A stretch of DNA of 64,000 nt from Brienomyrus brachyistius (lineage: Eukaryota; Chordata; Actinopteri; Osteoglossiformes; Mormyridae): NCBI RefSeq assembly GCF_023856365.1, contig NC_064542.1, positions 19,506,863-19,570,862 of the forward strand, in the 5' to 3' direction. The notes beneath the pieces were generated by a model. The model was not told where the DNA came from. It saw only the letters and a list, made by a program, of their open reading frames with translations, and did not search any database. The translations under genes were made by a program, and so were the position numbers. Positions 18,301 through 64,000 of the stretch are shown in pieces. Positions within the stretch are counted from its first letter, which is position 1. Every line of letters starts with the position of its first letter.

Positions 18301-21300
18301 AATTAGCGGGAGAACATTTCAAGCTGGATTTAAGGAAGCACTTCTTTACACAGCGCGTAGTCAGAGTATGGAATAGCCTTCCTGATAATGTAGTGCAAGC
18401 TGAATCCTTGGGTTCCTTTAAATCAGAGCTAGATAAGATTTTAACGACTCTGAGCTATTAGTTTAGTTCTCCCCAAGCAAGCTTGATGGGCCGAATGGCC
18501 TCCTCTCGTTTGTATAGTTCTTATGTTCTTATGTTCTTATTTGATTTTAATTAACAAAATGCTTTCATCATTATTTTTGTTTCCGTATTTGTTAATGAGA
18601 GTACCCTTGCCTCAAATATAGCTATGAAAACACATTCTGTCTACATTCTGGAGGTATGACAGCAATGCTGAAGTCCTCAAGGAATAATAGCATTGCAGCT
18701 GTCCTATCAGAAATATGGAGATGACTATTGTCCATATGTACTGACTCTCTTAATTCAGGTGTCCTCAGCAGGTGCCTCAGTGTAATTATGAATGTTGTCC
18801 AGCTTAGGCTTATTCTCACTGGCAGATTTATGGTGGTGAGGTTCATATGGAGCTGCCGTACAGAACCAAGTTCCAGGGTTGAATAAGTAGAACTGTATTC
18901 ACATGCTTGTACATGATTCTTAACTTGATGGTGTTGGTGAGTCTGCGTAAATGTGTATGACTCACCAAACTGACTAGTGCAGAACCCAGCCTCGGGAGTA
19001 GTATTCGTTTTACACAGCTGGGGGCACGGTGAGCTTGTTTTCACAGCTGCAAGCCACACACACAGTCAGTATCATACTTATCTACACTTAACTACCATCA
19101 CACACACAGTAATATACAAACAGAGTAACACAAGATGTATAAACAAAATATCACAAACAACTAGACAAAACTGTAACACTACATGACAGGGCACAAATAC
19201 TTAGTAATAACTCCGTTACTATCGAAGTACAAATTATGAACAAGTCATCAACAAATATAGTTGCTACGAGTTAAAAGATGCGTCACGATTCATTAATGAT
19301 GAACAAACATGAGATCAGTATTTCACTTGTGTTATTCATTACTTGTTCCTTTAGTAGTTCAGAAAGGTTTACTGAATTACTGTAACAGATATAGCAACTA
19401 ATAAAGTAATTGCTTGGGATGAAAGATGCATCATGATTTATTAATGATGAACAAATATGAGATCAGTATTTCACTTGTTATTCAGTACTTGTTCCTTCAA
19501 TAGTTCCTTCAGTAGTTCATAAAGATTTAAAGAATTAACAGATATTGTGACCCAGTAGGATAAACGGTTTGGAAAATGGATGGATGGATGGATGTAACAA
19601 ATGTAGTAAATGCTTGAGATAAAACATGCATCATGATTCATTCATCCATCCATTTTCCAAACTGCTTATCCTACTGGGTCACAGGGGGTCCGGAGCCTAT
19701 CCCGGAAGCACTGGGCACGAGGCAGGGAACAACCCAGGATGGGAGGCCAGCCCATCGCAGGGTACACTCACACACCACTCACACACAGATGCACTCCTAC
19801 AGGCAATTTAGCAAGTCCAATTAGCCTCAGCATGTCTTTGGACTGTGGGGGGAAACCGGAGTACCCGGAGGAAACCCCACGACGACATGGGGAGAACATG
19901 CAAACTCCGCACACATGTGACCCAGGCGGAGACTCGAACCCGGGTCCCAGAGGTGTGAGGTAACAGTGCTAACCACTGCACCACCATGCCACCCCCCATC
20001 ATGATTCATTAATGATGAATTAACGTGAAATCATTATGTAACCAAGATGCAGTTTGGGGTTAATTAGTACATAAGTATAATACTATATTATTTGTGCCCC
20101 ATCAATTTGCAACACAGTAACATGACACTACATGGGCTACACAGATAGGAGACTGTACACTTTCTGCAGAAGATCTGACATACTCACGCTTCTGGTTTCC
20201 TCCAGGTTTCTTCACTAATGTTTTGGTTCTGTTTTGGCTCAGTTTGTTCATTTCAGTATCTACCTTGGACTTGGATTTTGCTGCAGGTTTCAGAATGGGT
20301 TTAGTGTCAGGCTTGGGAATAGGTTTAGTTTCAGCCTTGGGAATGGGTTTAGTTCCTGTCTTGGGAATGGGTTTTATTCCTGGTTTAGGAACTGGTTTAA
20401 TCCCAGGCTTGGGTGCAGGTTTGGTGCTAGGCTTCTGAATGAGTTTAGTTCCAGGTTTGGGAATGAGTTTGGTTCCAGGTTTTGGAGTAGGCTTGGTTCC
20501 AGGTCTGAGGATGGGCTTAGTTTGAGTTTTAGGAGTGGGTTTGGTGCCTGGCTTGATCTGGGGTTTGAGTTTAGGTTTAGGAAAAGGTTTAGGTTTTGGT
20601 CTTGGTTTTGGTGTCACCTTGGGATGACCTGGTGCGGCTGTTGGTTTTATGGCTGATTTAGGGTTAGGTTTGGGTTTGGGTTTTGGGGATAGAAGGACGG
20701 GCTTGCTGGGCTTAGCACGAGGGGGTACTGATGGTACTCTGGGTCCTGGGATGATATCGTTTCCTGCAGTAGGTGTTCTGGACCCACGGGGTACACTGGA
20801 GTAGCTGGCCATGAAGCCATCAGAGGTCACACTAAGGTCAGACACAAACTGGACCAGGAGGTTATTCCCACTGGTCACTATGGTCCTGGAGGGGGACAAA
20901 AGAAAACAGACATAATGTCACAGAAGGTAAACAGCTGAACTTGACTGCTGAGAACCCAGTAATAGTTCTACTTTAATAAAGGAAATAATAATTAACAAAA
21001 TAAACGAAGCATGAGTATTGTTTATCCATCCATCTATCTTCCAGCAGCTTGTCCAGTGTAGGGTTGTAGGGGGGGCAGACAGCTTAGGGCAGAAGGCAGA
21101 AAAACACATGATGGGATGCCAGACCATTCTAGAATACACAGACGCACACACACACACACACACATACACACAGCCAGACAGACACAAAGTCACACAACGG
21201 GAATTTTTGCAAGATACTTCTAAAAGTCAAACATTTTAAGGGGACATAGGAAACAGGGTTTTGTGTCAAAGTTTGAAACCTTATCGCATACCATGTCTAC

Positions 21301-24300
21301 ACATACAGTGTCCCATGAAAAATTTACAAGAAAATCAATGTTTTCTTTTTATTGCATAAGTTTCATATCTGTGGTGCAGGGGGTTTCCTGTCCAAAGTCA
21401 ACATTAGGGCATTTAAGTATCACTACCTCACTTATTTTCCAGGCAGTAAAGCTTCAATAATACAATAATTGCAGGAGCTGCTAAGGAGTGAACCTTTAAG
21501 AAAGAAAGATATTCAATACCTGTTCCAGATGGACATCTGCATTATTCAGGTCAGTAAATGACCGACTTAAGTCCAGAGACTCACTTGGGCACCTCGGTGC
21601 CGCAGAACTTGCCAATCCGCTGGGAGTCGTCCGTTTCGCCGCCGTTGAAGAACGCCACGTAGTCATAGCGACAGTAGCTGTCAGCCTCTAGGTCGAACTT
21701 GTCAAACTTTACTTCAATCAGCTGTGTGATAGGAAATACACGCACTCTGCACGTCACGTGACCCGCCTGACAAAGAGCATAATGTTGAATGATTCCCTAA
21801 TAGAATCAATAATTTAATAGGCTAAGGAGACAGAGTGTCCATATCGAGCTGGCAGGCTAGTGGATGAGCAGCCGGGTCCAGAAGCGGCTTTGCTTAGATG
21901 AGGGGGCCTTTGATTATGTGCTGACTTGCTGTACTTTCAATGACACTATTCATTCCCCAGAACAAGCTTGGCACCTGGGCTGGGCCCAAACACACAGAAC
22001 CCCCCTGTCAGAGCGGAAGAGGTGGATTGGGGTGAGAAGGGGGGGGGTCCTACCATGTTGGGTTCCACGGAGATGTGCCAGGAGCAGCTGATGCCTGCTG
22101 GGTAATCCACCTCCGGCCAATTGGGCGTCTTGACTGTCCCCTGCGGCTTCGTCAGCCGACCTCCGCAGAACTGGTGCTCTTGGATTCGGAGGAACAGAAG
22201 CCCTGAAATCCCTTTTGCACACCTTTTATATTCTCATATCTAACCCTGACGGTTCTCTTCTTGTGTTACTACGTGACATTCCAGTTCTTGAATTAATGAC
22301 TTCACACTGAAGTTTAGTAATTGGGATGGGGGAGGGGGAGAACGGGGACAGGACAAGGGTGCAGAAGAGCAGTGCTTTGACTAACACTTTACTTGAGGAG
22401 GCACAAGTAACTCAGTTTCAACTTATGTACAAATCATGAACTAAAATAGTTCCTGCATGAAATACATGAACTGTTGTTGAACAAACAAGGGATCAGTATG
22501 TAACTAATACTTGGTTTCTGGTTAATTAAAACATTAGGTAAGAGTATACTACTACATTTGCATACTACTACCTCAAGTAAGGTGTTACCACCTTATATGA
22601 TATATGCCTTATAACACTGTATTAGGAGTGTGTATATAACTTCTTTATTACAGAACATATCCTTTCAAAATAACAGTATCCTGCTTATTCTTATGGTGCC
22701 TTCATTTAACTACCCCTGCGAGATGCAAGAAGGAAACAACGCAGAAATAAAGATAAAGAACATTATTCCTGGAAATACAGCGTCTCAAAGGTACAAGCCT
22801 GGGAGAGAAGAGAGTGCAGGCATGACGATGATGAGGCAGAAGATTTACAGCGTTCTCTCACCATCCACATGCGGTTTGCCCCCACGAAAGTATGCTAGGA
22901 AGCCGCGGCCCCCCGTCTCCGAATCTGACTCCATCTCCACCATCATGGTGTTGCTGGTGGAAATCAGGCTGCCAGGACGGAAGGTTCCACAGAACCGGCC
23001 CAGCATCTGTGCTGTGCGGGTGTGCCCGTTGTAGACGTCTACGAAGTCATAACGGCAGCGTGGGTCGGCCTCCAGGTCGAAGACGCGGAAGGACAGCATG
23101 ACCACATGGCCTTCTGGGACCTGGCGTGGTGACAGTTATAGCTGATTGGGTACGAGGCAACCAGACACTGAGCTGCAGCAGGGTGATGTATGCATGATGT
23201 ATACGGAGGGGAACTTGGGCCAAGGCGCAGGGGACTCACTGTGATATACCAGGTACATTTCCGGCTGGGTTTGTAGTAGTTGGGGAAGCTTTCGCTAGCA
23301 AAATAACCAGAATCTGTAACAAGACGACCACCACAGAGAAACACTGGCCTGAAGAGAGGGACAGAAATGGAGAAAAGAAAACTTTTTTATATGGAAATTT
23401 TAGTTTTAACCACAATTACACCAGTGCTGCGTAAAAAGAAATCTCTTCATATTCAGGAAGTTTAAAAGCAAACAGTTATTAGTGAGATCTCAAGAAGTTC
23501 TTTGCTAATCGTTTTGGCACAGGAAAAATAGTCCATACAAAAAATATAGAATAATTGTTATGAGTGTGTTTACTCTTTTCTGGAGGAAGGAAATGGCTGA
23601 GTGTCACTTGAGGGAGTTTCAAGCTATTGAAAAGATCAGGGGCTAAGTTAAGTTTACTGTTTTTTTTTGAGGGAAGGTCGGCATCGAGGCTAAATCGCCC
23701 CAAGTTATCAGACCTAGCTAGGCCCATGGTGTTACTTTAATCCAGATCCCAGCATCATAACTCACAAAAAACGTGCCAACACAGGAGAGGGGGTTTCAAA
23801 CCCCTGACCATGCAAAACATTTTTCAGATTAGATTTTTTTCATTTCTGCTGACCCTGGGATTTGAACCAGCAGCCTTCCAAACCTGGGGCCTACATCACA
23901 AAGATTTGTTGAGTGGTTAGATCATTTTTCAGATTTAAGATAACCCAGTTTAAAGGCACTTTATCTTCGGTCATTTCCATTTAACGTAGACTACCTTAAA
24001 TCTGACAAGTGATCTTGTTCACCAAAAAACCCAGCTTTGTGATGCAAGAGCCAGGAGAGTCACGCATCACAGTTTTCGCATTAAAAATATTTTATTGTCT
24101 CAGTCATTTTATAGTGTCATACGAAAAGGTTGTGGGTATTATGTCAAAGCCCAGATCTTTTCTGACTTCAGCAGCAGAATGGGGGTGATGAACTTGCCTT
24201 CAAAACCAGTGTTTTTATAAAGGTTGGTCTGTTGGAGTGCACTAACACAGCACACACTAATGTGGCCCACATGCACCCCTCCCCCCCCCCCACCCCCGCC

Positions 24301-34700: not shown

Positions 34701-37700
34701 GAAAACATTCAGGCTGAATTAGCCCTTAACAGCCGCGATCCTGGTCTCCCCGCAATTTCCCAATGGCTACAGGCATTTCTTCATTTTACTTCAGCCTTGT
34801 TTTCTGTAATCATCCGTCGAACAAAAATTCAGCTACAATGGTGGTAAATTATTACTCCTTTATGATGGATATCGTGATTTTCTAATTAATTATAGATGAC
34901 AGATGTCTTATGGGCATGACAGGCCCTTAAAGCGTAACAATTTCTATATTTTTTTATATGAGATTTAGAAGTATAAAATAAAAAAGGGATATTTCCTGTA
35001 TTTTGCACCCTAAATGAAAAAAGTTTCACTATAAGGATATTTTTCACTACCTCGTATTTAACCATAAGACAGATTCATCCAAATGAACTTGAAAATCATT
35101 CGTGTTGCTGTCAGAAGTTCTCAAATACATTCAAATACACTGGATGACCCCCCACTCCAAGTGGCTACCTTTGGCGAAGGGCGTAGCTGTGTGGCGCCGC
35201 TGAGGGGCGGAGCTGGGGTCAAACACACGCAGCTGACTCAGGTCCCGGAAGCGGCTGAGGAAGGCCTGCTCCTCCTGCTGTGTGTGTGCCGACAGCACCT
35301 CTTTGGTGAGGCCCAACCGCCCCGCAACCCCCCTCCGACTGTCTGGCGGTGGTGGTGCGGGGCTTGGTGGAGCTGCTGATGCCAGAGGCATGGGCGGAGG
35401 AGGAGGAGGGGGTGGCAACTGGGGCGGGGCCTGAGTAGGAGTAGGAGGGGCCTCCTCCATGACAATGTCTGCTTGAGAAAACAGGAGAAGTACAGTGAAG
35501 GTGCAGGATTTGCTTAAGTTTATTATAGTTATTCACAGAACACCATTAGGGCATTTCGGAACAATGAGAGCCGCTAGGGAGTGGCAGGGCAAACAGAACA
35601 AGATGGAGGTAACATAGGGTGGAGTCAGCGGGCTGTTTCTCAATACCAAAAAAGATCTTACTTGCGGTCTTGGCAAGACCAATCTTGCCAACTTGCCTCT
35701 CAAGAACGATCTTGGTGAGCTATGAATCATGGGATTGGTATGAATCATGGGATTTGGCCAGGATGCAAAGGACGTATCCTTGATATATGGACCGGGGCAA
35801 TAATGACACCTGGGGATTTTTACTGTCGTCCATACTGCTGTTCCCGAGCATTGGAACTTTGGCAATGGAAGATGACGTAAAAGGGGTACACGAGAACACG
35901 AGTACGGTCAAGTGCACATATTGAGAAACACTCCAGATGTAGGGGAGGAGACAAAGGAGAGGCGGGGCATACTGTATAGGACAAGAAAGATGTCACGCAG
36001 AGAAGGCAGAGCCTATCAGAGGGCTTATTTAACAAGGGGAGGAAAGTGAGGGCATGTGGGCGGGGGCAGGCGTACCCGACTCGGGCGGCTTCTTGTCGCC
36101 CACGTGGACGATGGTGCTGCTGAAACTGCACTGCGACGTGACGGACGCCACACTCTCCGTCTTACTGTGCAGTGCCAGCGGGGGCAGCGCCGTCCCATCA
36201 GCCCCTAGGGCCACCGATGCGCCTGCAGCGTGGGGCACGAACAGACAGCAATACAAAGTGAAAGACAGCACAGGGAGGGGGCTTTACATGAGACATTAAA
36301 TAGAAATATATGAAGGCTGACAAGGGGTTTATTTTTTATAAGGTTATGATGTATAATCTCTATCTCTTTCAGCTGCAGCAGATCCAATTCAATACAGTCA
36401 GAATGTGGCATGGAGGTGAGGCTGCTGGCTTCTCACGTTTTCTGGTGCCCGATGACTCCTTCTGCTTGTCGTCATCGGAGGTGGAGGACATTGTACAGGA
36501 GGAAGAGCCACACTTCCTTTTGACAGTGTTGGGCACGTTGCAGCTCTCCAGGTAGCTGGAAGACACAATGACACCAGGACATGACATCAGGACATGACGT
36601 CAGGACATGACATCGCGAGAAGTTCAGCCAATTGGTTGCTTTGCATTTGATTGAATTAAGCTCTTCAGACGGAGACACAGACAGACACACACCGTATGAT
36701 GCTGTCCAGGCAGTTGATTTGCTGGTAAGAGTAGGTTGTCGGTGGTTCCTTTCTCACAGGTTCCACTGTAAGCGTTTCTGATGGAAGTGCAGCCTCTTTG
36801 CTCACATCCTTGACTGGCCTTGCTGGCTCTGTGGCTCCCAAGGTGCCCACTGCTGCTGCAACCAGGAGAGGAGAGGACATGTGGGAGGGGGTGTTTGTGT
36901 CTACCGCAAGGGTGCCAGGGCACACCAAGGTCAGCTGCTGTACACTTACCTGGACTGGGATTTTTTCGGGGTGGGGGGCGGTTGCGAGACTCTATGAAGA
37001 CCTGCTGACCATTGGTCTTCACCATATGGACGTCCTTGCAGATCTGCTGGAATGTCATCTGAAAGTGGAGTGGGGAGGGGTTACAGTGATGTACTGGAAG
37101 TGTACCATGGTGTTTTCAGAAAGGATGCTCTTATACATCTTTGTGTCTGAAAGATATGTTTGTACGGGGAGACAGAAATCAGGGAGTGTCTGGGAATGAC
37201 AAGCACTCAAGGGGTTGTGTGTAGGACTCACGGAATGTCTGGGACTCACGAGCTTGTGTATAGGACTCACGGAGCGTCTGGGACTCGCGGGCTTGTGTAT
37301 AGGACTCACAGGCTTGTGTATGGGACTCACGGGCTTGTGTATAGGACTCACGGAGCGTCTGGGACTCACAGGCTTGTGTATGGGACTCACGGGCTTGTGT
37401 ATAGGACTCACGGAGCGTCTGGGACTCACAGGCTTGTGTATGGGACTCACGGGCTTGTGTACAGGACTCACGGAGCGTCTGGGACTCACAGGCTTGTGTA
37501 TGGGACTCACGGAGCGTCTGGGACTCACAGGCTTGTGTATGGGACTCACGGGCTTGTGTATAGGACTCACGGAGCGTCTGGGACTCACAGGCTTGTGTAT
37601 GGGACTCACGAGCTTGTGTATAGGACTCACGGAGCGTCTGGGACTCACAGGCTTGTGTATGGGACTCACGGGCTTGTGTATAGGACTCACGGAGCGTCTG

Positions 37701-40700
37701 GGACTCACAGGCTTGTGTATGGGACTCACGGGCTTGTGTATAGGACTCACGGAGCGTCTGGGACTCACAGGCTTGTGTATGGGACTCACGGGCTTGTGTA
37801 TAGGACTCACGGAGCGTCTGGGACTCACAGGCTTGTGTATGGGACTCACGGGCTTGTGTATAGGACTCACGGAGCGTCTGGGACTCACAGGCTTGTGTAT
37901 GGGACTCACGAGCTTGTGTATAGGACTCACGGAGCGTCTGGGACTCACAGGCTTGTGTATGGGACTCACGAGCTTGTGTATAGGACTCACGGAGCGTCTG
38001 GGACTCACGGGCTTGTGTATAGGACTCACGGAGCGTCTGGGACTCACAGGCTTGTGTATGGGACTCACGGGCTTGTGTATAGGACTCACGGAGCGTCTGG
38101 GACTCACAGGCTTGCGCAGCTGTATGGTCTCTTCAGCTGCGGTGTCACTGGAGGAGGCGGCGCTCATGTGTTGCTCCTGAGAGCCGTTGCTGCCCAGGCT
38201 ACAGTAGCCCTGGGAGCCACTGGCATGGACGGGCTGCACCAGGACCCGGTGGATCTGCTCATTCAGCTGGTGGACCTCGGGCACCATGGCCCGGCCCTCC
38301 CCACCCTGAGGGGGGCTGAACACGTCTTCGTTTAAGGGACTCCTGTGGGAAACATACACACGGCGTCACTTACGTCAAAGGACAGCAAAACAGAGCTGGG
38401 TGAGAAAGACGATCTTTGATCGCATCAAACGGGGGACCACAAACTCACGCTCGCACTTTGTGGCGGCCTATGATGAAGGCCACCTTGCGGCTCCAGGGGT
38501 TGACGAAGCTGGACCAGCTTGTGTCGATAGTGAGGTACTCCCCACTGCGGGCACACATGCGCAGGGGGGAGTGGTCGAAGGGCTGCCCCGCAAACTGCAG
38601 GACTGCGGAAGGGGAGGAGGGGTTGAGAGGGGAGGAGCTGTGATAAAACAGCAGATGCATGGCATGGCGTGCCTGTTTTATTAGGCTGTTAGTGTGGGGC
38701 TCGTGTCAAGAGACCTAACTGCTAGCAGATAATCAGTATGGACTGACTGACAGCTCTACTCAAGGTCTAGTGATAGGCTAGCGGCATGCTAGCTTTACAC
38801 CACATGCTGATTTTTAATTGGTAGCTTAGAGCAGGAAGATGCTAGCAGGGAGCCAGACAGCTAGCGGCATGCTAGGTTTGCAGCACATACTGCTTTTTAA
38901 CTAGTAATTTAGAGCAGGAGGATGCTAGCAAGACACCAGACAGCTAGCGGCACACTAGCATTCAGAGGAGCAGTCCGCTAACAGGCTCAAAGGTCGGGGT
39001 ACTCACTTTTCTTGTGGATGGCCAACATGATGGGCCTGTCCTCAGGATGAAGATACAGCAACACAGGTGTGCCCACCAGGTCCTGGGGCAGGTAGCCCAG
39101 CAATGGGACCGCCCTGTCACACAACAGCCCCGTTACAGAACCCCTGCTACCCGCGTGTTCGGAAGCGACACACATGCTCGCCGACGTGCACAAAATGCAC
39201 CCACCGTTCATCGACATCCTGGAAGAGGCAGCTCGGAGTGTGGCTGGTGGTGAAGACCCTCTTATCGGGAGGGATACGTGGAGCTGAAGAGCACACGCAA
39301 CACGATTCAGACAGGGCATGGGGAGACGGATGTGGCGCATGTGGTGCGAGGAGGCGGAGCTTACCTTCGTAACCCGAGTGCACCCGCTCAGCGATGAGGA
39401 GGCAGCATGGCTGGGCGGCTGCCATTTCCGAGTCGCGCAGGGTAAGCCTGTAGGGGGTCAGGCGGAAGGGGTAGTACCGGACCGCACCCTGGTAGACCCA
39501 TCCGCCGCTTATGCGGCAGAATATGGATTTCTCCTGTGTACAGTCCATGGGGGAGGGACCTGTAACAGAAAGATAGCAGGTATTGCTTATCTGAGGCACC
39601 ATGCCTGTCTAAATTTACGATCTGACATTTAGAAAAGGGCCTGACCTGAGCCCATGCAGGTAGACCACAGGGGTAGCCGACATGGCGCCGTGTTACTGTA
39701 GAAGGTGTTCAAATCCTGAGGGGCCAGCAGCTCCGAGAAGAGCGCCCCCTGCAGGCTGTCCGGCTTGCAGCGCAGGAGAGAAGAGCCCTGCGGTGAGATG
39801 TACACCACCTTCCCCGACAGGAAGGACACAGCCATGGTGAAGGTGTCCTGATGGACAAGCAGGGAGGGGCATCGTTAAAGAGACAAAGGATCATCCAGAA
39901 TATGCAGGAGTCTCAGTCTGTCTCTTTCATTTAAAAGTATAGTAACAGAAAAACCGGGCTGCTGCACAACAAAAGACCGAGCTGGGATGGGGGCAGGGGA
40001 GACTTTATGTCTACAGAGGACACAAACAGATTAGGGAGAAGTACTCACTTTGTCTTTTCGGTATTCTCTACTTTAAGGTTATATGTCGTGTTTGTAGAGT
40101 ACACTCAAGGGAGAGATACAGTCCGTTTAGGTCTCAAAGGTGAGATGCTGTGTTTTTAAATGCGTTGCACAATAACACAGTGTTTTTGCTTTATGTTGTT
40201 GGGATTCAGTGTTTTGTAGAGTGTACTCTGTTGTTTTTGAGGGTGTAGCAGAGCTAGGGCACTGTGATCTTGTGTTTGAGATACTCACTGTGTTTTTGAG
40301 GGTGTACTCGGAGGTGATGTTGTCCAGTTCCTCTACAGTGAACGTGGAGAGGTCCAGACTGCAGCTGTGACTCTCCTCCACACTCCACTGTCGATAATAC
40401 TCCTGGTTGGCTGTAAAGCACAAACATGCATGCACATTTAGAACACCAAAAAGAAAGACCTTAAAACGAATCTAATTTTTAATTACCAAACAAAGTCCTT
40501 TTGGAAAAAATATACAACGCCTCACCTCGCACTTGCTTGACGCAGTTGAGAGCGTACTTGAGGGCGTCGAGCGTCCCCGATCGGCCCTTACGGTCGGCCG
40601 GCACCCGGATTTTCAGCTCCCGCAGGGCCTTCCTCAGTGCCTTCTGCGTCTGCACGCGGGCCGACTGGTCGCTACTGCAGCCGCTGGTGGAGGGGTGGTC

Positions 40701-55609: not shown

Positions 55610-58596
55610 AGAAGATAAATTTCTTAACGTTTAATACCCTTTATGGCATTATGTAAAAATAAAAGGACATTAATGAAATATTTATTCATTATTCATTTAT
55701 AGATATATTTATTCAATTTAAAGCAGTTTAGTTATCCTGGAATGCGCCAATAACTTTATTTCTCCTCCTACTGTTAATGTTTGGCAGATTTGGCATATGA
55801 AAGTGATTCAAGTGCTTATTGCTGCAAGTTGCAGGAAAGTGAGATATGATTACAAACAGTTGGTCTAGAGCAGGGCTCATCAACCTTTTTGAAACTGAGA
55901 CCTACTTCACGGGTATTGAGCCATACAAAAGGGCTACCAGTTTCAAACGCCCTCCTAAACTGATCTAAACTTCATGTACAATATGTGTTAAATGCTTTTT
56001 TTAATATTGTCATTTCCAAATCTATATAAATGTGGTTAAAAAATAGCAACAGGATAAAATTAATTTTAGACGCTGCTCACTGGTGAGTTGTGCTATTTTT
56101 AGAACAGGTCCGCGGGCAACTCATGTGGTCCTTGGGGGCATCCTGGTGCCCGCAGGCACCATGCCGGTGACCCCGGTCTAGACTCATGTGGAGACGCATG
56201 TTAATACCAGATGTAAACAGACCGTCAGTTTTCCTTACTGTGATGCACTGTAACTCATGATGCTATATATAAACCTGTCTTGAGGGAATTTAAAGGATAG
56301 GTTACTACTGTAGGATCAAAAAATTGAATGTACAATACTTTTTACTTAAGTATTTTTTTCCCCCACTTTTACTTGAGTACTGTTTTACCGGATGACATTT
56401 ACTTCTACATGAGTAACATTACTATGACCTCAAATTCAAAATAGAACTCAAAGGATCTACTTTGCCTAAAGTTCGCTGTGATTTTAGCCTCTCCCCGGTA
56501 TCGTGCTAACCTTGGTGATGCGTCTGTAGGTGTCCGTGTGGCTGGAGGTCTCAAAGGGGGGATTGCCCACCAAGCACTCGTAACAGAGCACGCCGATGCA
56601 CCACAGGTCCACCTTCTCATTATGGGTGTGCCCCTCAATCATCTCTGGCGGAAGGTAGTCCAGCGTTCCACACATTGTTCGCCGCCTGGTTGGGGAAAGA
56701 AAGGACTCGCACCTATTTTCTATAGCATGTTCCCAGAAAACAGGGCTAGTTTAAAAAAAAGAAAACGGAGATGGAAAAGCGTGGGACTGACATCTCCTTC
56801 TGACGTCTTGTTACAAACCCCAACTAACCTAACATCACTAATGACAGAGGTACGGGCACTCACCGCAGGGATGGTGCGTGGACCGACCAACCGAAATCGG
56901 CAATCTTTAGCTCCCCACGAAAACCGAGCAGGAGATTTTCAGGCTTGATGTCCCGATGAATGACCTTCCGCTCATGGCAATATTGTAGTGCATCGGACAA
57001 CTCCTCCATGTACTGATGAGCATTAACATCACATAAGACCACCGTCAATCTGCTTCCTAAATTCCATATGCTCATTTCTTTCTCCCTCTCATTAAATGAG
57101 GTGCCTGAAGAACTGAATGCCCAGGATGGACCAAAAATCTGCATCTCCATACAGATGCACGTACAGAGGCGGTATTGCAATCCCACCTTCCCCTCACTCA
57201 CCGTAGCAGTGCGCTGGTCGTCGAAGCGACCGCACCGCTGCAGCTCCTTGTACATCTCGCCCCTTGGGGCATACTCCAGAATCAAGAACACCCGTGTTCG
57301 GTCATGGAAGTAGTTATAGAAGCGTAGGATGTTGGGGTGTCTGCGGAGGATTGGGAGAGAAGAGAATTAAAACTACATGTACTTACACAAGTGGGAACAT
57401 GGATGGACATGGACACAGACTGAGAGAGACACACATACAAGCGAGTCATGTGTTACCTAACAAACTAATCTCTCAAGTCACAAAGCAAGCATGTGGCAAA
57501 AATGTTTAATGGGCCAACCTGAGGTGGGACTGGATCTCAATCTCCCGCCGGAGCTGATGCTCCACCCCCTCCTTCTCAATCTGGGACTTGAACAGAACCT
57601 TCAGCGCCACAATGAAGTTCAGCTTGCGCTCGCGAGCCAAATAAACATTCCCAAACTTTCCCTTACCCAGTGGCCGGCCAATGTCAAAGTTCTTAATAGA
57701 AAACTTTCTGAAATAAGAAAATTAACAGCCATTGTAAACTTATGTTCTAGTTGGCCTAAATGATCCAAGCATGATAAGCACATTGTTACTTTTAACAGTT
57801 CAACATATTTAGCATTGTTATTTTGTCAGTGAAACTGCACAGACGCCCCCTTTCCCACTGAAACTCACATGTTTTGGTTTGTACCAGTAGCAGAGGTCGA
57901 TACCACAACGCCAGGATCTTTGAAAAGACGAAAAGAGTGACTTGCCACGATGAGCAATTGATTATGTGAAGGAAAAAAATACGTCTTAGTTATACATAAG
58001 CATTTTAAACCTAAATTTTACCCTTTTCACCGGCTGCCATGGCCGGGTACCGCAACACTCGCTGGGGACCCATCATTCCCGTCGGCTTCTTGAACTGGGA
58101 GGAAAAGAAATGAAGCCGTCAGCATGCAAGATAAACGCAACTTTGCTACTGTTGTACAAACCAGCGAAATTCCTGTCCCTGGTGAGCCAAACCAAAGTAG
58201 TTAACAATTCAAGCAATGTTGTTATTAATACACAAGCAATATATCTGAAAAGACTACATGATACCGGCGCGCGTATCGCTGGCCTACCTCGCCTGGGTTC
58301 CCTCTAGGTTCCTGATTCTCTTTATTCTGTTTGGATACATCAGTGTTCAGTATTATGTTACTCGGACGACAAGAATGTTGTCACTCTAACAATTAAGAAA
58401 GCAAGTAACAATTAAAAGTAAAGTACTCATCTCATCTGAATCAAAAAAGGATAATACGCAAGTCATTTCAAGTATACAAAAACTACACAGAGTGTATCCG
58501 TTTAGTTTCGTGCTCTTTTAGCTTTAACTTTTCCCAACTCGGAGTTTAACGATCAAACGCCAATAAAACTAAACGTGCATTACTAATTACCTGCAT
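54518..58596 (-). CDS. aurkb: aurora kinase B
   Basis: Catalytic Ser/Thr kinase of the chromosomal passenger complex (with INCENP, survivin, borealin), acting at centromeres and the midzone in mitosis. Eight phase-consistent coding exons: 58591-58596, 58031-58094, 57869-57917, 57519-57707, 57202-57340, 56864-57012, 56511-56685, 54518-54691; 314 aa (human 344). P-loop [13 protein letters not shown] (50-62), catalytic K76 (ALKVL), HRDIKPEN (168-175), DFG (188-190), activation loop [15 protein letters not shown] with T202. The tail [14 protein letters not shown] marks Aurora B rather than A. The first coding exon is just ATG CAG; the MQ start agrees with remembered fish aurkb. The N-terminus is short. 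Donors GTTGGC (57518-57513) and GTTAGC (56510-56505) are weak. A hAT MITE lies in the last intron. All catalytic residues are intact. Confidence 0.96.
55576..55607. repeat. (CA)n microsatellite
   Basis: About 16 uninterrupted CA dinucleotides inside the last aurkb intron. Confidence 0.95.
55871..56175. mobile_element. hAT-type MITE in the last aurkb intron
   Basis: It starts CAGGGCTCATCAACCTTTTT, a common hAT-like terminus. Flanking 8-mers GTCTAGAG (55863-55870) and GTCTAGAC (56176-56183) match at seven of eight bases. The right terminus is diverged. No transposase frame. Confidence 0.7.
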
Positions 58597-60745: not shown

Positions 60746-61164
60746 TGTCACGCCCAGCTCGTCCGATCCTCGTGTGTGCCACGCCCCCTGATTATCCACG
60801 TGTGCTTTCCCGATCGTGCCCAGCTTTGTCTGATTATTTTCAACCAGTCCTGTCTTTTTAAGTCCACGTCTTGCCTGATGCCTTTGTCTGTCATTGATGT
60901 TAGTCGTCGTGAGATGTTCCCTGCACCCTGTTTGTCCAATAAATCCCCGTTCACCCTGCTCTTGCCCGCTCGCCTGTTACCTGCCCGCTCGCCTGTTACC
61001 TGCCCGCTCGCCTGTTACCTGCCCGCTCGCCTGTTACCTGCCCGCTCGCCTGTTACCTGCCCGCTCGCCTGTTACCTGCCCGCTCGCCTGTTACCTGCCC
61101 GCTCGCCTGTTACCTGCCCGCTCGCCTGCCAGCGCGATCACCCGCTTCTCGAGCGAACGTGACA
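60746..61164 (+). mobile_element. solo LTR with 5-bp target duplication
   Basis: The ends are TGTCACG and its inverted CGTGACA. TGTAC flanks both sides (60741-60745 and 61165-61169). An AATAAA lies at about 60940. The GTGTGCCACGCCCCCT segment links it to the older LTR at 2725-2991. No internal region remains, so it is a solo LTR, Gypsy-like or ERV-like. The perfect duplication suggests a fairly recent insertion. Confidence 0.85.
60964..61128 (+). repeat. 19-bp minisatellite inside the solo LTR
   Basis: Eight identical copies of GCCCGCTCGCCTGTTACCT and a partial ninth, just after the LTR poly(A) signal. Confidence 0.95.
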
Positions 61165-63136: not shown

Positions 63137-64000
63137 TACTGAACAAAAATATAAACGCAACACTCTTGTTTCTGCTCCCATTTTTCATGAGATGGACTTA
63201 AAGATCTACAATTCATTCCAGATACACAATATTACCATTTCTCTCAAACATTTCTCACAAATCAGTCTAAATGTGTGATAGTGAGCACTTCTGCTTTGCT
63301 GAGATAATCCATCCCACCTCACAGGTGTGCCACATCAAGATGCTGATCTGACATCATGGGTAGTGCACAGGTGTACCTTATACTGCCCACAATAAAAGGC
63401 CACCCTGGAATGTGCAGTTTTTTGCTTTATTGGGGGTCTGGGGACTCAGAACCGGTCAGTATCTGGTGTGACCACCATTTGCCTCATGCAATGCAACACA
63501 TCTTCTTCGCATAGAGTTTATCAGATTGTCAATTGTGGCCTGTGGAATGTTGGTCCACTCCTCTTCAATGGCTGTGCGAAGTTGTTGGATATTAGTGGGA
63601 ACTGGTACACGCTGTCGTATACGCCGGTCAAGCACATCCCAAACATGCTCAACGGGTGACATGTCCGGTGATTATGCTGGCCATGCAAGAACTGGGACAT
63701 TTTCAGCTTCCAAGAACTGTGTACAGATCCTTGCAACATGGGGCCGTGCATTATCTGTCTGAGTGGCTGGTCTCAGACGATCTTGGAGGTGAACCTGCTG
63801 GATGTGGAGGTCCTGGGCTGGTGTGGTTACACGTGGTCTGCGGTTGTGAGGCCGGTTGGATGTACTGCCATATTCTCTGAAACGCCTTTGGAGACGGCTT
63901 ATGGTTGAGAAATGAACATTCAATGCACGAGCAACAGATCTGGTTGACATTCCTGCTGTCCGCATGCCAATTGCACGCTCCCTCAATGCTTGTGGCATCT
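63137..64000 (-). mobile_element. Tc1-like transposon, internally deleted, running off the window
   Basis: The left terminus TACTGAACAAAAATATAAAC is a known fish Tc1-like end. The minus strand encodes the transposase N-terminus (MPQALRERAIGMRTAGMSTR, helix-turn-helix through about 63790), then jumps to the C-terminal part (DNARPHVA, a stop, SPDMSPVEHVWDVLDRRIRQR, to a stop at 63456). The first catalytic region is missing and a stop interrupts, so it cannot make transposase. The other terminus lies beyond 64000. Confidence 0.85.

What the first reader, a model, noticed from the sequence alone, without database searches (positions are those of the whole stretch)
37226..38107. per1 exon 9 is followed by about 44 tandem, in-frame copies of a 5' splice-site motif
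Seen: every module of a 60-nt-period minisatellite starts GTGAGT, a strong U1-matching donor core, spaced 18 or 21 nt apart, starting at the exon end itself. All modules keep the reading frame, and exon 10 accepts phase 0. Use of any donor would therefore give a valid PER1, differing only in the number of Ser-Pro/Arg-Ser repeats (0 to about 290 residues). Known: a VNTR in the coding part of human PER3 is a well-studied clock polymorphism. Inference: this could be a length-variable splice-donor array that tunes PER1 isoforms, a U1 decoy array, or a repeat that grew from a duplicated exon boundary. I know of no described case in per1.
Basis: partly seen in the sequence, partly recalled or inferred. 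Interest (0 to 1): 0.86.

Follow-up and report, generated by a model that had tools for sequence, protein, structure and literature searches.

The report
Repeated splice site in fish per1
In a fish clock gene, per1, the splice signal at the end of one exon is followed by 43 more in-frame copies of itself; the array is likely an intronic repeat that is usually cut out at the first copy, although use of any other copy would lengthen the PER1 protein.

Summary
On the minus strand, per1 intron 9 starts at 38107 with 44 exact GTGAGT motifs (38107 to 37231), 18 or 21 nt apart, plus one mutated GCGAGT. All 44 are in phase 0, so each would join exon 10 and add 0 to 292 residues. The best protein hit is PER1 of the mormyrid Paramormyrops kingsleyae (95%). 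Only one match was found in the 985-Mb genome. The array likely grew from the exon 9/intron 9 junction: 13 donors, the real one included, share 25 identical nt (7 exonic in the first). The junction is older than the array: 119 of 120 listed relatives join P directly to MTFQQ, and none shows the repeat. Selection is not visible: 6 of 7 substitutions change an amino acid, the donor hexamer is not specially conserved, another frame is open too, and the distal edge has decayed. The donors are weak, not strong. Best reading: a junction-derived minisatellite, usually removed from the first donor. Closest known kind: the human CBS 31-bp repeat across exon 13/intron 13. A PER1 length ladder is not excluded; RNA must decide.

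The parts
38108..38342 (-). per1 exon 9 (235 nt), ends CAAGCCT, phase 0 at its 3' end
   Evidence: hand-made gene model; homology to 120 listed PER1 proteins
37059..38107 (-). per1 intron 9 (1049 nt), longest of the 18 introns of the model
37211..38107 (-). minisatellite: 45 modules of 18 or 21 nt in three types (A GTGAGTCCCAGACGCTCC; B GTGAGTCCTATACACAAGCCC; C GTGAGTCCCATACACAAGCCT), mostly in the order A-B-C (60 nt)
38102..38107 (-). first GTGAGT: the conserved exon 9 donor
   Evidence: P joined directly to MTFQQ in 119 of 120 listed relatives
38090..38114 (-). 25-nt junction block CAAGCCT|GTGAGTCCCAGACGCTCC, present 13 times including this one
37226..37231 (-). last exact GTGAGT; its use would leave a 173-nt intron and add 292 residues
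37271..37288 (-). module with mutated donor core GCGAGT
37180..37210 (-). decayed distal edge: TTGAGT, then CCCAGACACTCC with the flanking hexamers lost
   Evidence: alignment by eye
36950..37058 (-). per1 exon 10 (MTFQQICKDV...), accepts phase 0

Best explanation
Intron 9 of this fish per1 gene begins with 44 head-to-tail, in-frame copies of the GTGAGT donor, a minisatellite that likely grew by tandem duplication of the exon 9/intron 9 junction and is likely spliced out from the first, ancestral donor in most transcripts. Shown: the copies, their phase, the 25 identical nt around 13 donors, the single match found in the genome, and the conservation of the junction in relatives without the repeat. 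Inferred: the duplication origin (exon-end codons and donor copied together, then spread by unequal exchange or slippage), the dominance of the first donor, and the idea that the array is tolerated because modules of 18 and 21 nt keep the frame, so that occasional use of another donor would only add Val-Ser-Pro-rich residues before MTFQQICKDV instead of breaking PER1. No regulatory role is needed to explain what is seen.
For: The 25-nt block CAAGCCT|GTGAGTCCCAGACGCTCC occurs 13 times, 7 nt of it exonic in the first copy. In this window only 2 of 7441 other GT sites are preceded by 7 or more nt matching a module end. Junction: 113 of the 120 listed proteins have KPMTFQQIC and 116 have PMTFQQIC; three of the other four join P directly to MTFQQMC, so 119 of 120; the list is the best 120 of 2178 found. 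The best hit, Paramormyrops kingsleyae isoform X1 at 95% identity, has no insertion. P0133, a protein called from a 4673-base contig, appears to read through its introns: HKP|VSPGW...LLQ|MTFQQ, 28 codons, so an intron 9 opening like the module (HKPVSP) exists without an array. A per2-like paralogue on C17 has AAGCCG|GTGAGC, an intron of about 150 nt and no such array. Substitutions away from the module types: 6 of 7 nonsynonymous (0.72-0.74 expected without constraint), 1 of 7 in the hexamer (2.1 expected, P(<=1)=0.33); five of the seven lie in the modules at 37288, 37249 and 37231. By the weight matrix no other donor of the array beats the first: 13 tie with it and 30 score lower. Genome-wide, three-GTGAGT arrays are no commoner than the reversed pattern, 6027 against 6913 matches.
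Against: Local sequence cannot favour the first donor over 12 others that are identical over 25 nt, and by U1 duplex the other 43 GTGAGT are equal or slightly stronger (-5.5 to -5.8). The other 17 introns of the model are short (81-761 nt, 9 of 17 under 140 nt), so pairing across the intron could favour a distal donor (173 nt left). It is not known whether P. kingsleyae has the array, and only the representative of its 8-member cluster was seen. The exon-tail match beyond the 7 nt needs a 6-nt gap and is weak alone: 57 of 2000 shuffles and 204 of 17999 windows reach its score, and the tail of exon 7 scores nearly as high (17 against 18). The substitution count leaves out the two synonymous differences that separate types B and C; with them it is 6 nonsynonymous of 9. 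So few changes give little power, and 44 of 45 intact hexamers could reflect recent growth or selection.
Confidence: 0.62

Rival explanations
1. PER1 length ladder: several donors are used regularly, giving PER1 proteins with 0 to 292 extra Ser-Pro-rich residues, and copy number tunes the clock.
For: All 44 donors in phase; 13 donors locally identical; short introns elsewhere in the gene; no stop in the frame.
Against: None of the 120 listed relatives carries the repeat. Two searches with the array found no PER1 containing it: 11 hits, none named PER or bearing PER domains, 10 hits, each aligned over at most 20% of the query, and the five whose ends I read have no array. Insertions of one or two modules would have been missed. 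No purifying selection on the peptide (low power).
Confidence: 0.17
2. Array without protein output: the 44 weak donors bind U1 without splicing and affect intron retention, transcription or processing of per1; retention would give a stop at exon 10 and likely decay of the mRNA.
For: Each copy can pair with U1 over six bases; retention meets a stop at exon 10.
Against: Hexamer not conserved beyond the rest; U1 duplex energies among the weakest of the gene. Predicted accessibility is low at the array donors (0 to 0.024), but also at the real donors of exons 8 and 10, so it does not decide.
Confidence: 0.08
3. Transcriptional element: 44 copies of TGAGTCC, one base from the AP-1 site TGAGTCA (site recalled), act as an enhancer.
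For: 44 TGAGTCC in the array.
Against: 0 exact AP-1 sites and 0 of the five E-box, D-box and CRE strings tested, which were recalled.
Confidence: 0.04
4. Assembly error: the copy number is wrong, collapsed or expanded.
For: Near-identical copies over about 900 bp; no reads available.
Against: One match in a 985-Mb assembly, with scattered variants (CTC ends, ATA/GTA, decayed distal edge) that a simple duplication artefact would not be expected to give. Presence of an array is not in doubt.
Confidence: 0.08

Closest known systems
Human CBS 31-bp VNTR, c.1444_1467+7(16_21) (exon 13-intron 13)
   Same: Tandem repeat across an exon-intron junction; by its published coordinates each unit holds 24 exonic nt and 7 intronic nt, so each carries the donor (PMC2630376, passages; location also in a table of PMC1395315, passage).
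   Different: 31 nt is not a multiple of 3, 16-21 copies, and it is polymorphic in people. Here the modules are 18/21 nt, 44 donors, all in phase 0; polymorphism untested. That CBS transcripts use several of the donors is my recollection of Lievers et al. 2001, which is not held.
[quoted passage not shown]
   Same: Duplicated exon boundary giving two competing splice sites; the paper says that one is strongly favoured (PMC2630376, passage).
   Different: One duplication, at the other end of an exon.
Human PER3 coding VNTR (54 nt, 4 or 5 copies)
   Same: Repeat in a period gene, tied to clock and sleep traits (PMC4046067 and PMC4164614, starts of abstracts in listings).
   Different: Lies inside a coding exon of another gene; that it holds no splice-site copies is recalled, not tested.

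Membership tests
Junction-spanning tandem repeat (CBS type) | Repeat array overlaps an exon-intron boundary | tested here: met
   Array starts at the exon 9 donor, and the last 7 exonic nt match the repeat
Junction-spanning tandem repeat (CBS type) | Each unit carries a copy of the 5' splice site | tested here: met
   44 of 45 modules start GTGAGT
Junction-spanning tandem repeat (CBS type) | Copy number varies between individuals | not testable with these tools
   One assembly, one match
Junction-spanning tandem repeat (CBS type) | More than one donor used in mRNA | not testable with these tools
   No RNA data; two protein searches found no isoform with the array
Coding VNTR of a period protein (PER3 type) | Repeat is translated in the main protein | tested here: inconclusive
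   119 of 120 listed PER1 relatives join exon 9 to exon 10 without it; this species' own mRNA was not available
per1 gene | bHLH-like and PAS domains and PER1 orthology | tested here: met
   Pfam PF23170, PF21353, PF14598 in the first 695 residues; 95% to P. kingsleyae PER1

The most novel reading that the evidence does not exclude
A natural splice-donor ladder in a clock gene: the spliceosome chooses among 44 in-phase donors, 13 of them identical over 25 nt, and makes a graded series of PER1 proteins with 0 to 292 extra Ser-Pro residues just before the conserved TFQQICKDV segment, so that allele length sets a PER1 isoform mix.
Probability: 0.15. Interest if true: 0.85.

Novelty: new variant of a known kind. 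Interest (0 to 1): 0.5.

Why it matters
How a spliceosome picks one donor among equals is, as I recall, usually studied with built constructs of two or three sites. Here a vertebrate gene offers 44 in-phase donors, 13 of them identical over 25 nt, where every choice leaves the protein readable and each product can be told by its length. One long-read cDNA experiment would show whether position alone (first, last, or spread) decides. If several are used, PER1 would have a length series next to a segment conserved in the relatives listed. If only the first is used, the array shows how harmless an in-phase junction duplication can be.

Tried and rejected
Exact array elsewhere in the genome: one match only (that search skips very common words). 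PER1 proteins carrying the array: 11 hits, none named PER; I read a stretch of three of them, two Timema proteins and one unnamed, which hold Ser-Pro repeats; 10 hits, mostly period proteins; I read the ends of five, none with the array. Scleropages P0132, 595 aa, looked like a truncated isoform; it jumps from within exon 9 to a later exon and says nothing about the array. RNA accessibility did not single out the first donor. The gapped exon-tail alignment as proof of origin was weak alone, so the in-register 7-nt match and the 25-nt block are used instead. Literature: ten searches ran. Only (15 of 30 papers listed; 10 of 5009 listed) had per1 among the terms; no per1 repeat of this kind appears in the listed titles or abstract starts. 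The library lacks most subscription journals, so this is a thin basis for absence. Two period paralogues (C17, C21; per2-like by eye) show no such array in the 3 kb read of each. In the C21 copy the exon 9 equivalent was not located.

Full report
What is there. The window carries a complete per1 gene on the minus strand. My hand-made model (splice signals plus homology) has 19 coding exons (41613 to 31718), no internal stop and 1397 residues. Its first 695 residues match the Pfam PER bHLH-like and PAS families, and the best protein hit is PER1 isoform X1 of the mormyrid fish Paramormyrops kingsleyae, 95% identical over the full length; Scleropages is at 82% over 99% of the query and Arapaima at 82% over 54%. 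The species is therefore likely a mormyrid or a close relative. The window's assembly is held: 985 Mb in 1384 contigs, window on C10.

The array. Intron 9 is 1049 nt and starts with 44 exact GTGAGT from 38107 to 37231, spaced 18 or 21 nt (one gap of 39 nt over a mutated GCGAGT at 37288). There are 45 modules of three types, mostly ordered A-B-C (60 nt). All 44 donors are in phase with exon 10, and their use would insert 0, 6, 13, 20 ... 292 residues. Retention of the whole intron shifts the frame into a stop at the start of exon 10. A second frame is also open over 317 codons, so an open frame alone says little. The array DNA gave one match in the genome (that search skips very common words).

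Where it came from. The real junction, CAAGCCT|GTGAGTCCCAGACGCTCC, is found 13 times including the first. Only 2 of 7441 other GT sites in the window are preceded by a match of 7 or more nt to a module end. A longer gapped match to the exon tail exists (CCATACA, 6-nt gap, CAAGCCT), but it is weak by itself (57 of 2000 shuffles, 204 of 17999 windows; the tail of exon 7 scores 17 against its 18). The junction is old. Of the 120 proteins listed (best of 2178 found among 7985 scored), 113 have KPMTFQQIC and 116 PMTFQQIC; three more join P to MTFQQMC, so 119 of 120 have no insertion; the exception, P0049, has an unrelated stretch there. P0133, from a 4673-base contig, appears to read intron 9 through: HKP, then VSPGW and 23 more residues, then MTFQQ. 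Its intron thus opens with codons for Val-Ser-Pro, as the modules do, and would be only 84 nt. A per2-like paralogue on C17 has AAGCCG|GTGAGC and an intron of about 150 nt without such an array. The simplest account is that the ancestral junction was duplicated in tandem, exon end and donor together, in this lineage. I infer this; no close relative's intron could be read.

Is it selected? Seven substitutions separate modules from their type sequences (one, CCC to CTC, is shared by four modules; the double change at 37249 counts as two). Six change the amino acid, about as expected without constraint (0.72-0.74), and one falls in the hexamer (2.1 expected; P(<=1)=0.33). The two differences between types B and C, both synonymous, were left out; with them it is 6 of 9. 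Five of the seven lie in the modules at 37288, 37249 and 37231, and beyond them the repeat fades (TTGAGT, CCCAGACACTCC). This is the look of a repeat that grows near the exon and decays at its far edge, but the numbers are small. Repeats containing GTGAGT are common in this genome: the three-donor pattern has 6027 matches against 6913 for the same pattern reversed. AAGCCNGTGAGTCC has 48 sites genome-wide, 24 of them in this array.

How it likely works. The exon 9 donor is weak: U1 duplex -5.5 kcal/mol, tied with two others as second-weakest of 18 donors. The other 43 GTGAGT score -5.5 to -5.8. By a weight matrix with recalled frequencies, 13 tie with the first and 30 score lower. Nothing in the local sequence tells the first from 12 others. 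Two forces oppose each other: conserved use of the first junction in relatives, and the short introns of this gene (the other 17 are 81-761 nt, 9 of them under 140 nt), which could favour a distal donor that leaves 173 nt. I commit to the first donor as the main one, with occasional in-frame insertions, at 0.62. Regular use of many donors is the most interesting alternative (0.15-0.17). PER1 and PER2 anchor CK1 through a conserved kinase-binding domain (PMC7012598, passages); that the MTFQQICKDV segment lies in or beside that domain is my recollection and was not tested.

What is known. The closest described case is the human CBS 31-bp VNTR, whose published coordinates c.1444_1467+7(16_21) place 24 exonic and 7 intronic nt in each unit (PMC2630376, passages), at exon 13-intron 13 (PMC1395315, passage). 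The present array is the same kind of object in another gene and clade, with more donors and with all of them in phase. The PER3 VNTR (PMC4046067, PMC4164614, abstract starts in listings) is a coding repeat and not the same kind.

Limits. One genome, no RNA, no second individual. P. kingsleyae is represented by one sequence of an 8-member cluster, and its intron is unseen. The array searches would have missed insertions of one or two modules.

Noticed in passing
window 20105-20917 (-): Open frame of 271 codons with a Lys-Pro-Gly-Thr-Lys-Pro type repeat (TRF period 24/72 at 20277-20555), no Pfam match, not far from a CUB-domain frame at 22848-23135.
   Followed up: partly
window 60963-61128: Perfect 19-bp tandem repeat TGCCCGCTCGCCTGTTACC, 8.7 copies, 100% matches.
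   Followed up: no
window 36568-36614: 13-bp repeat (3.6 copies) in per1 intron 11, close to the exon 12 acceptor; a second repeat near a splice site of the same gene.
   Followed up: no
window 38777-38959: 83-bp repeat, 2.2 copies, in per1 intron 7.
   Followed up: no
window 56863-57366 (-): Frame with a protein kinase match (Pfam PF00069); resembles Aurora kinase by recall, which would fit PER1 neighbours as I recall them.
   Followed up: no
window 63675-63998 (-): Helix-turn-helix frame (Pfam HTH_23, HTH_28; weak match to the Sleeping Beauty HTH, below its cut-off), perhaps the N-terminus of a Tc1-type transposase.
   Followed up: no
G000:C1:8836173-8839135: Long minisatellite rich in GTGAGTGG (many listed matches): many GTGAGT in a row is not in itself rare in this genome.
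   Followed up: no
P0133: Protein from a 4673-base contig that seems to read per1 introns 8 and 9 through in frame; its intron 9 of 84 nt opens Val-Ser-Pro.
   Followed up: partly
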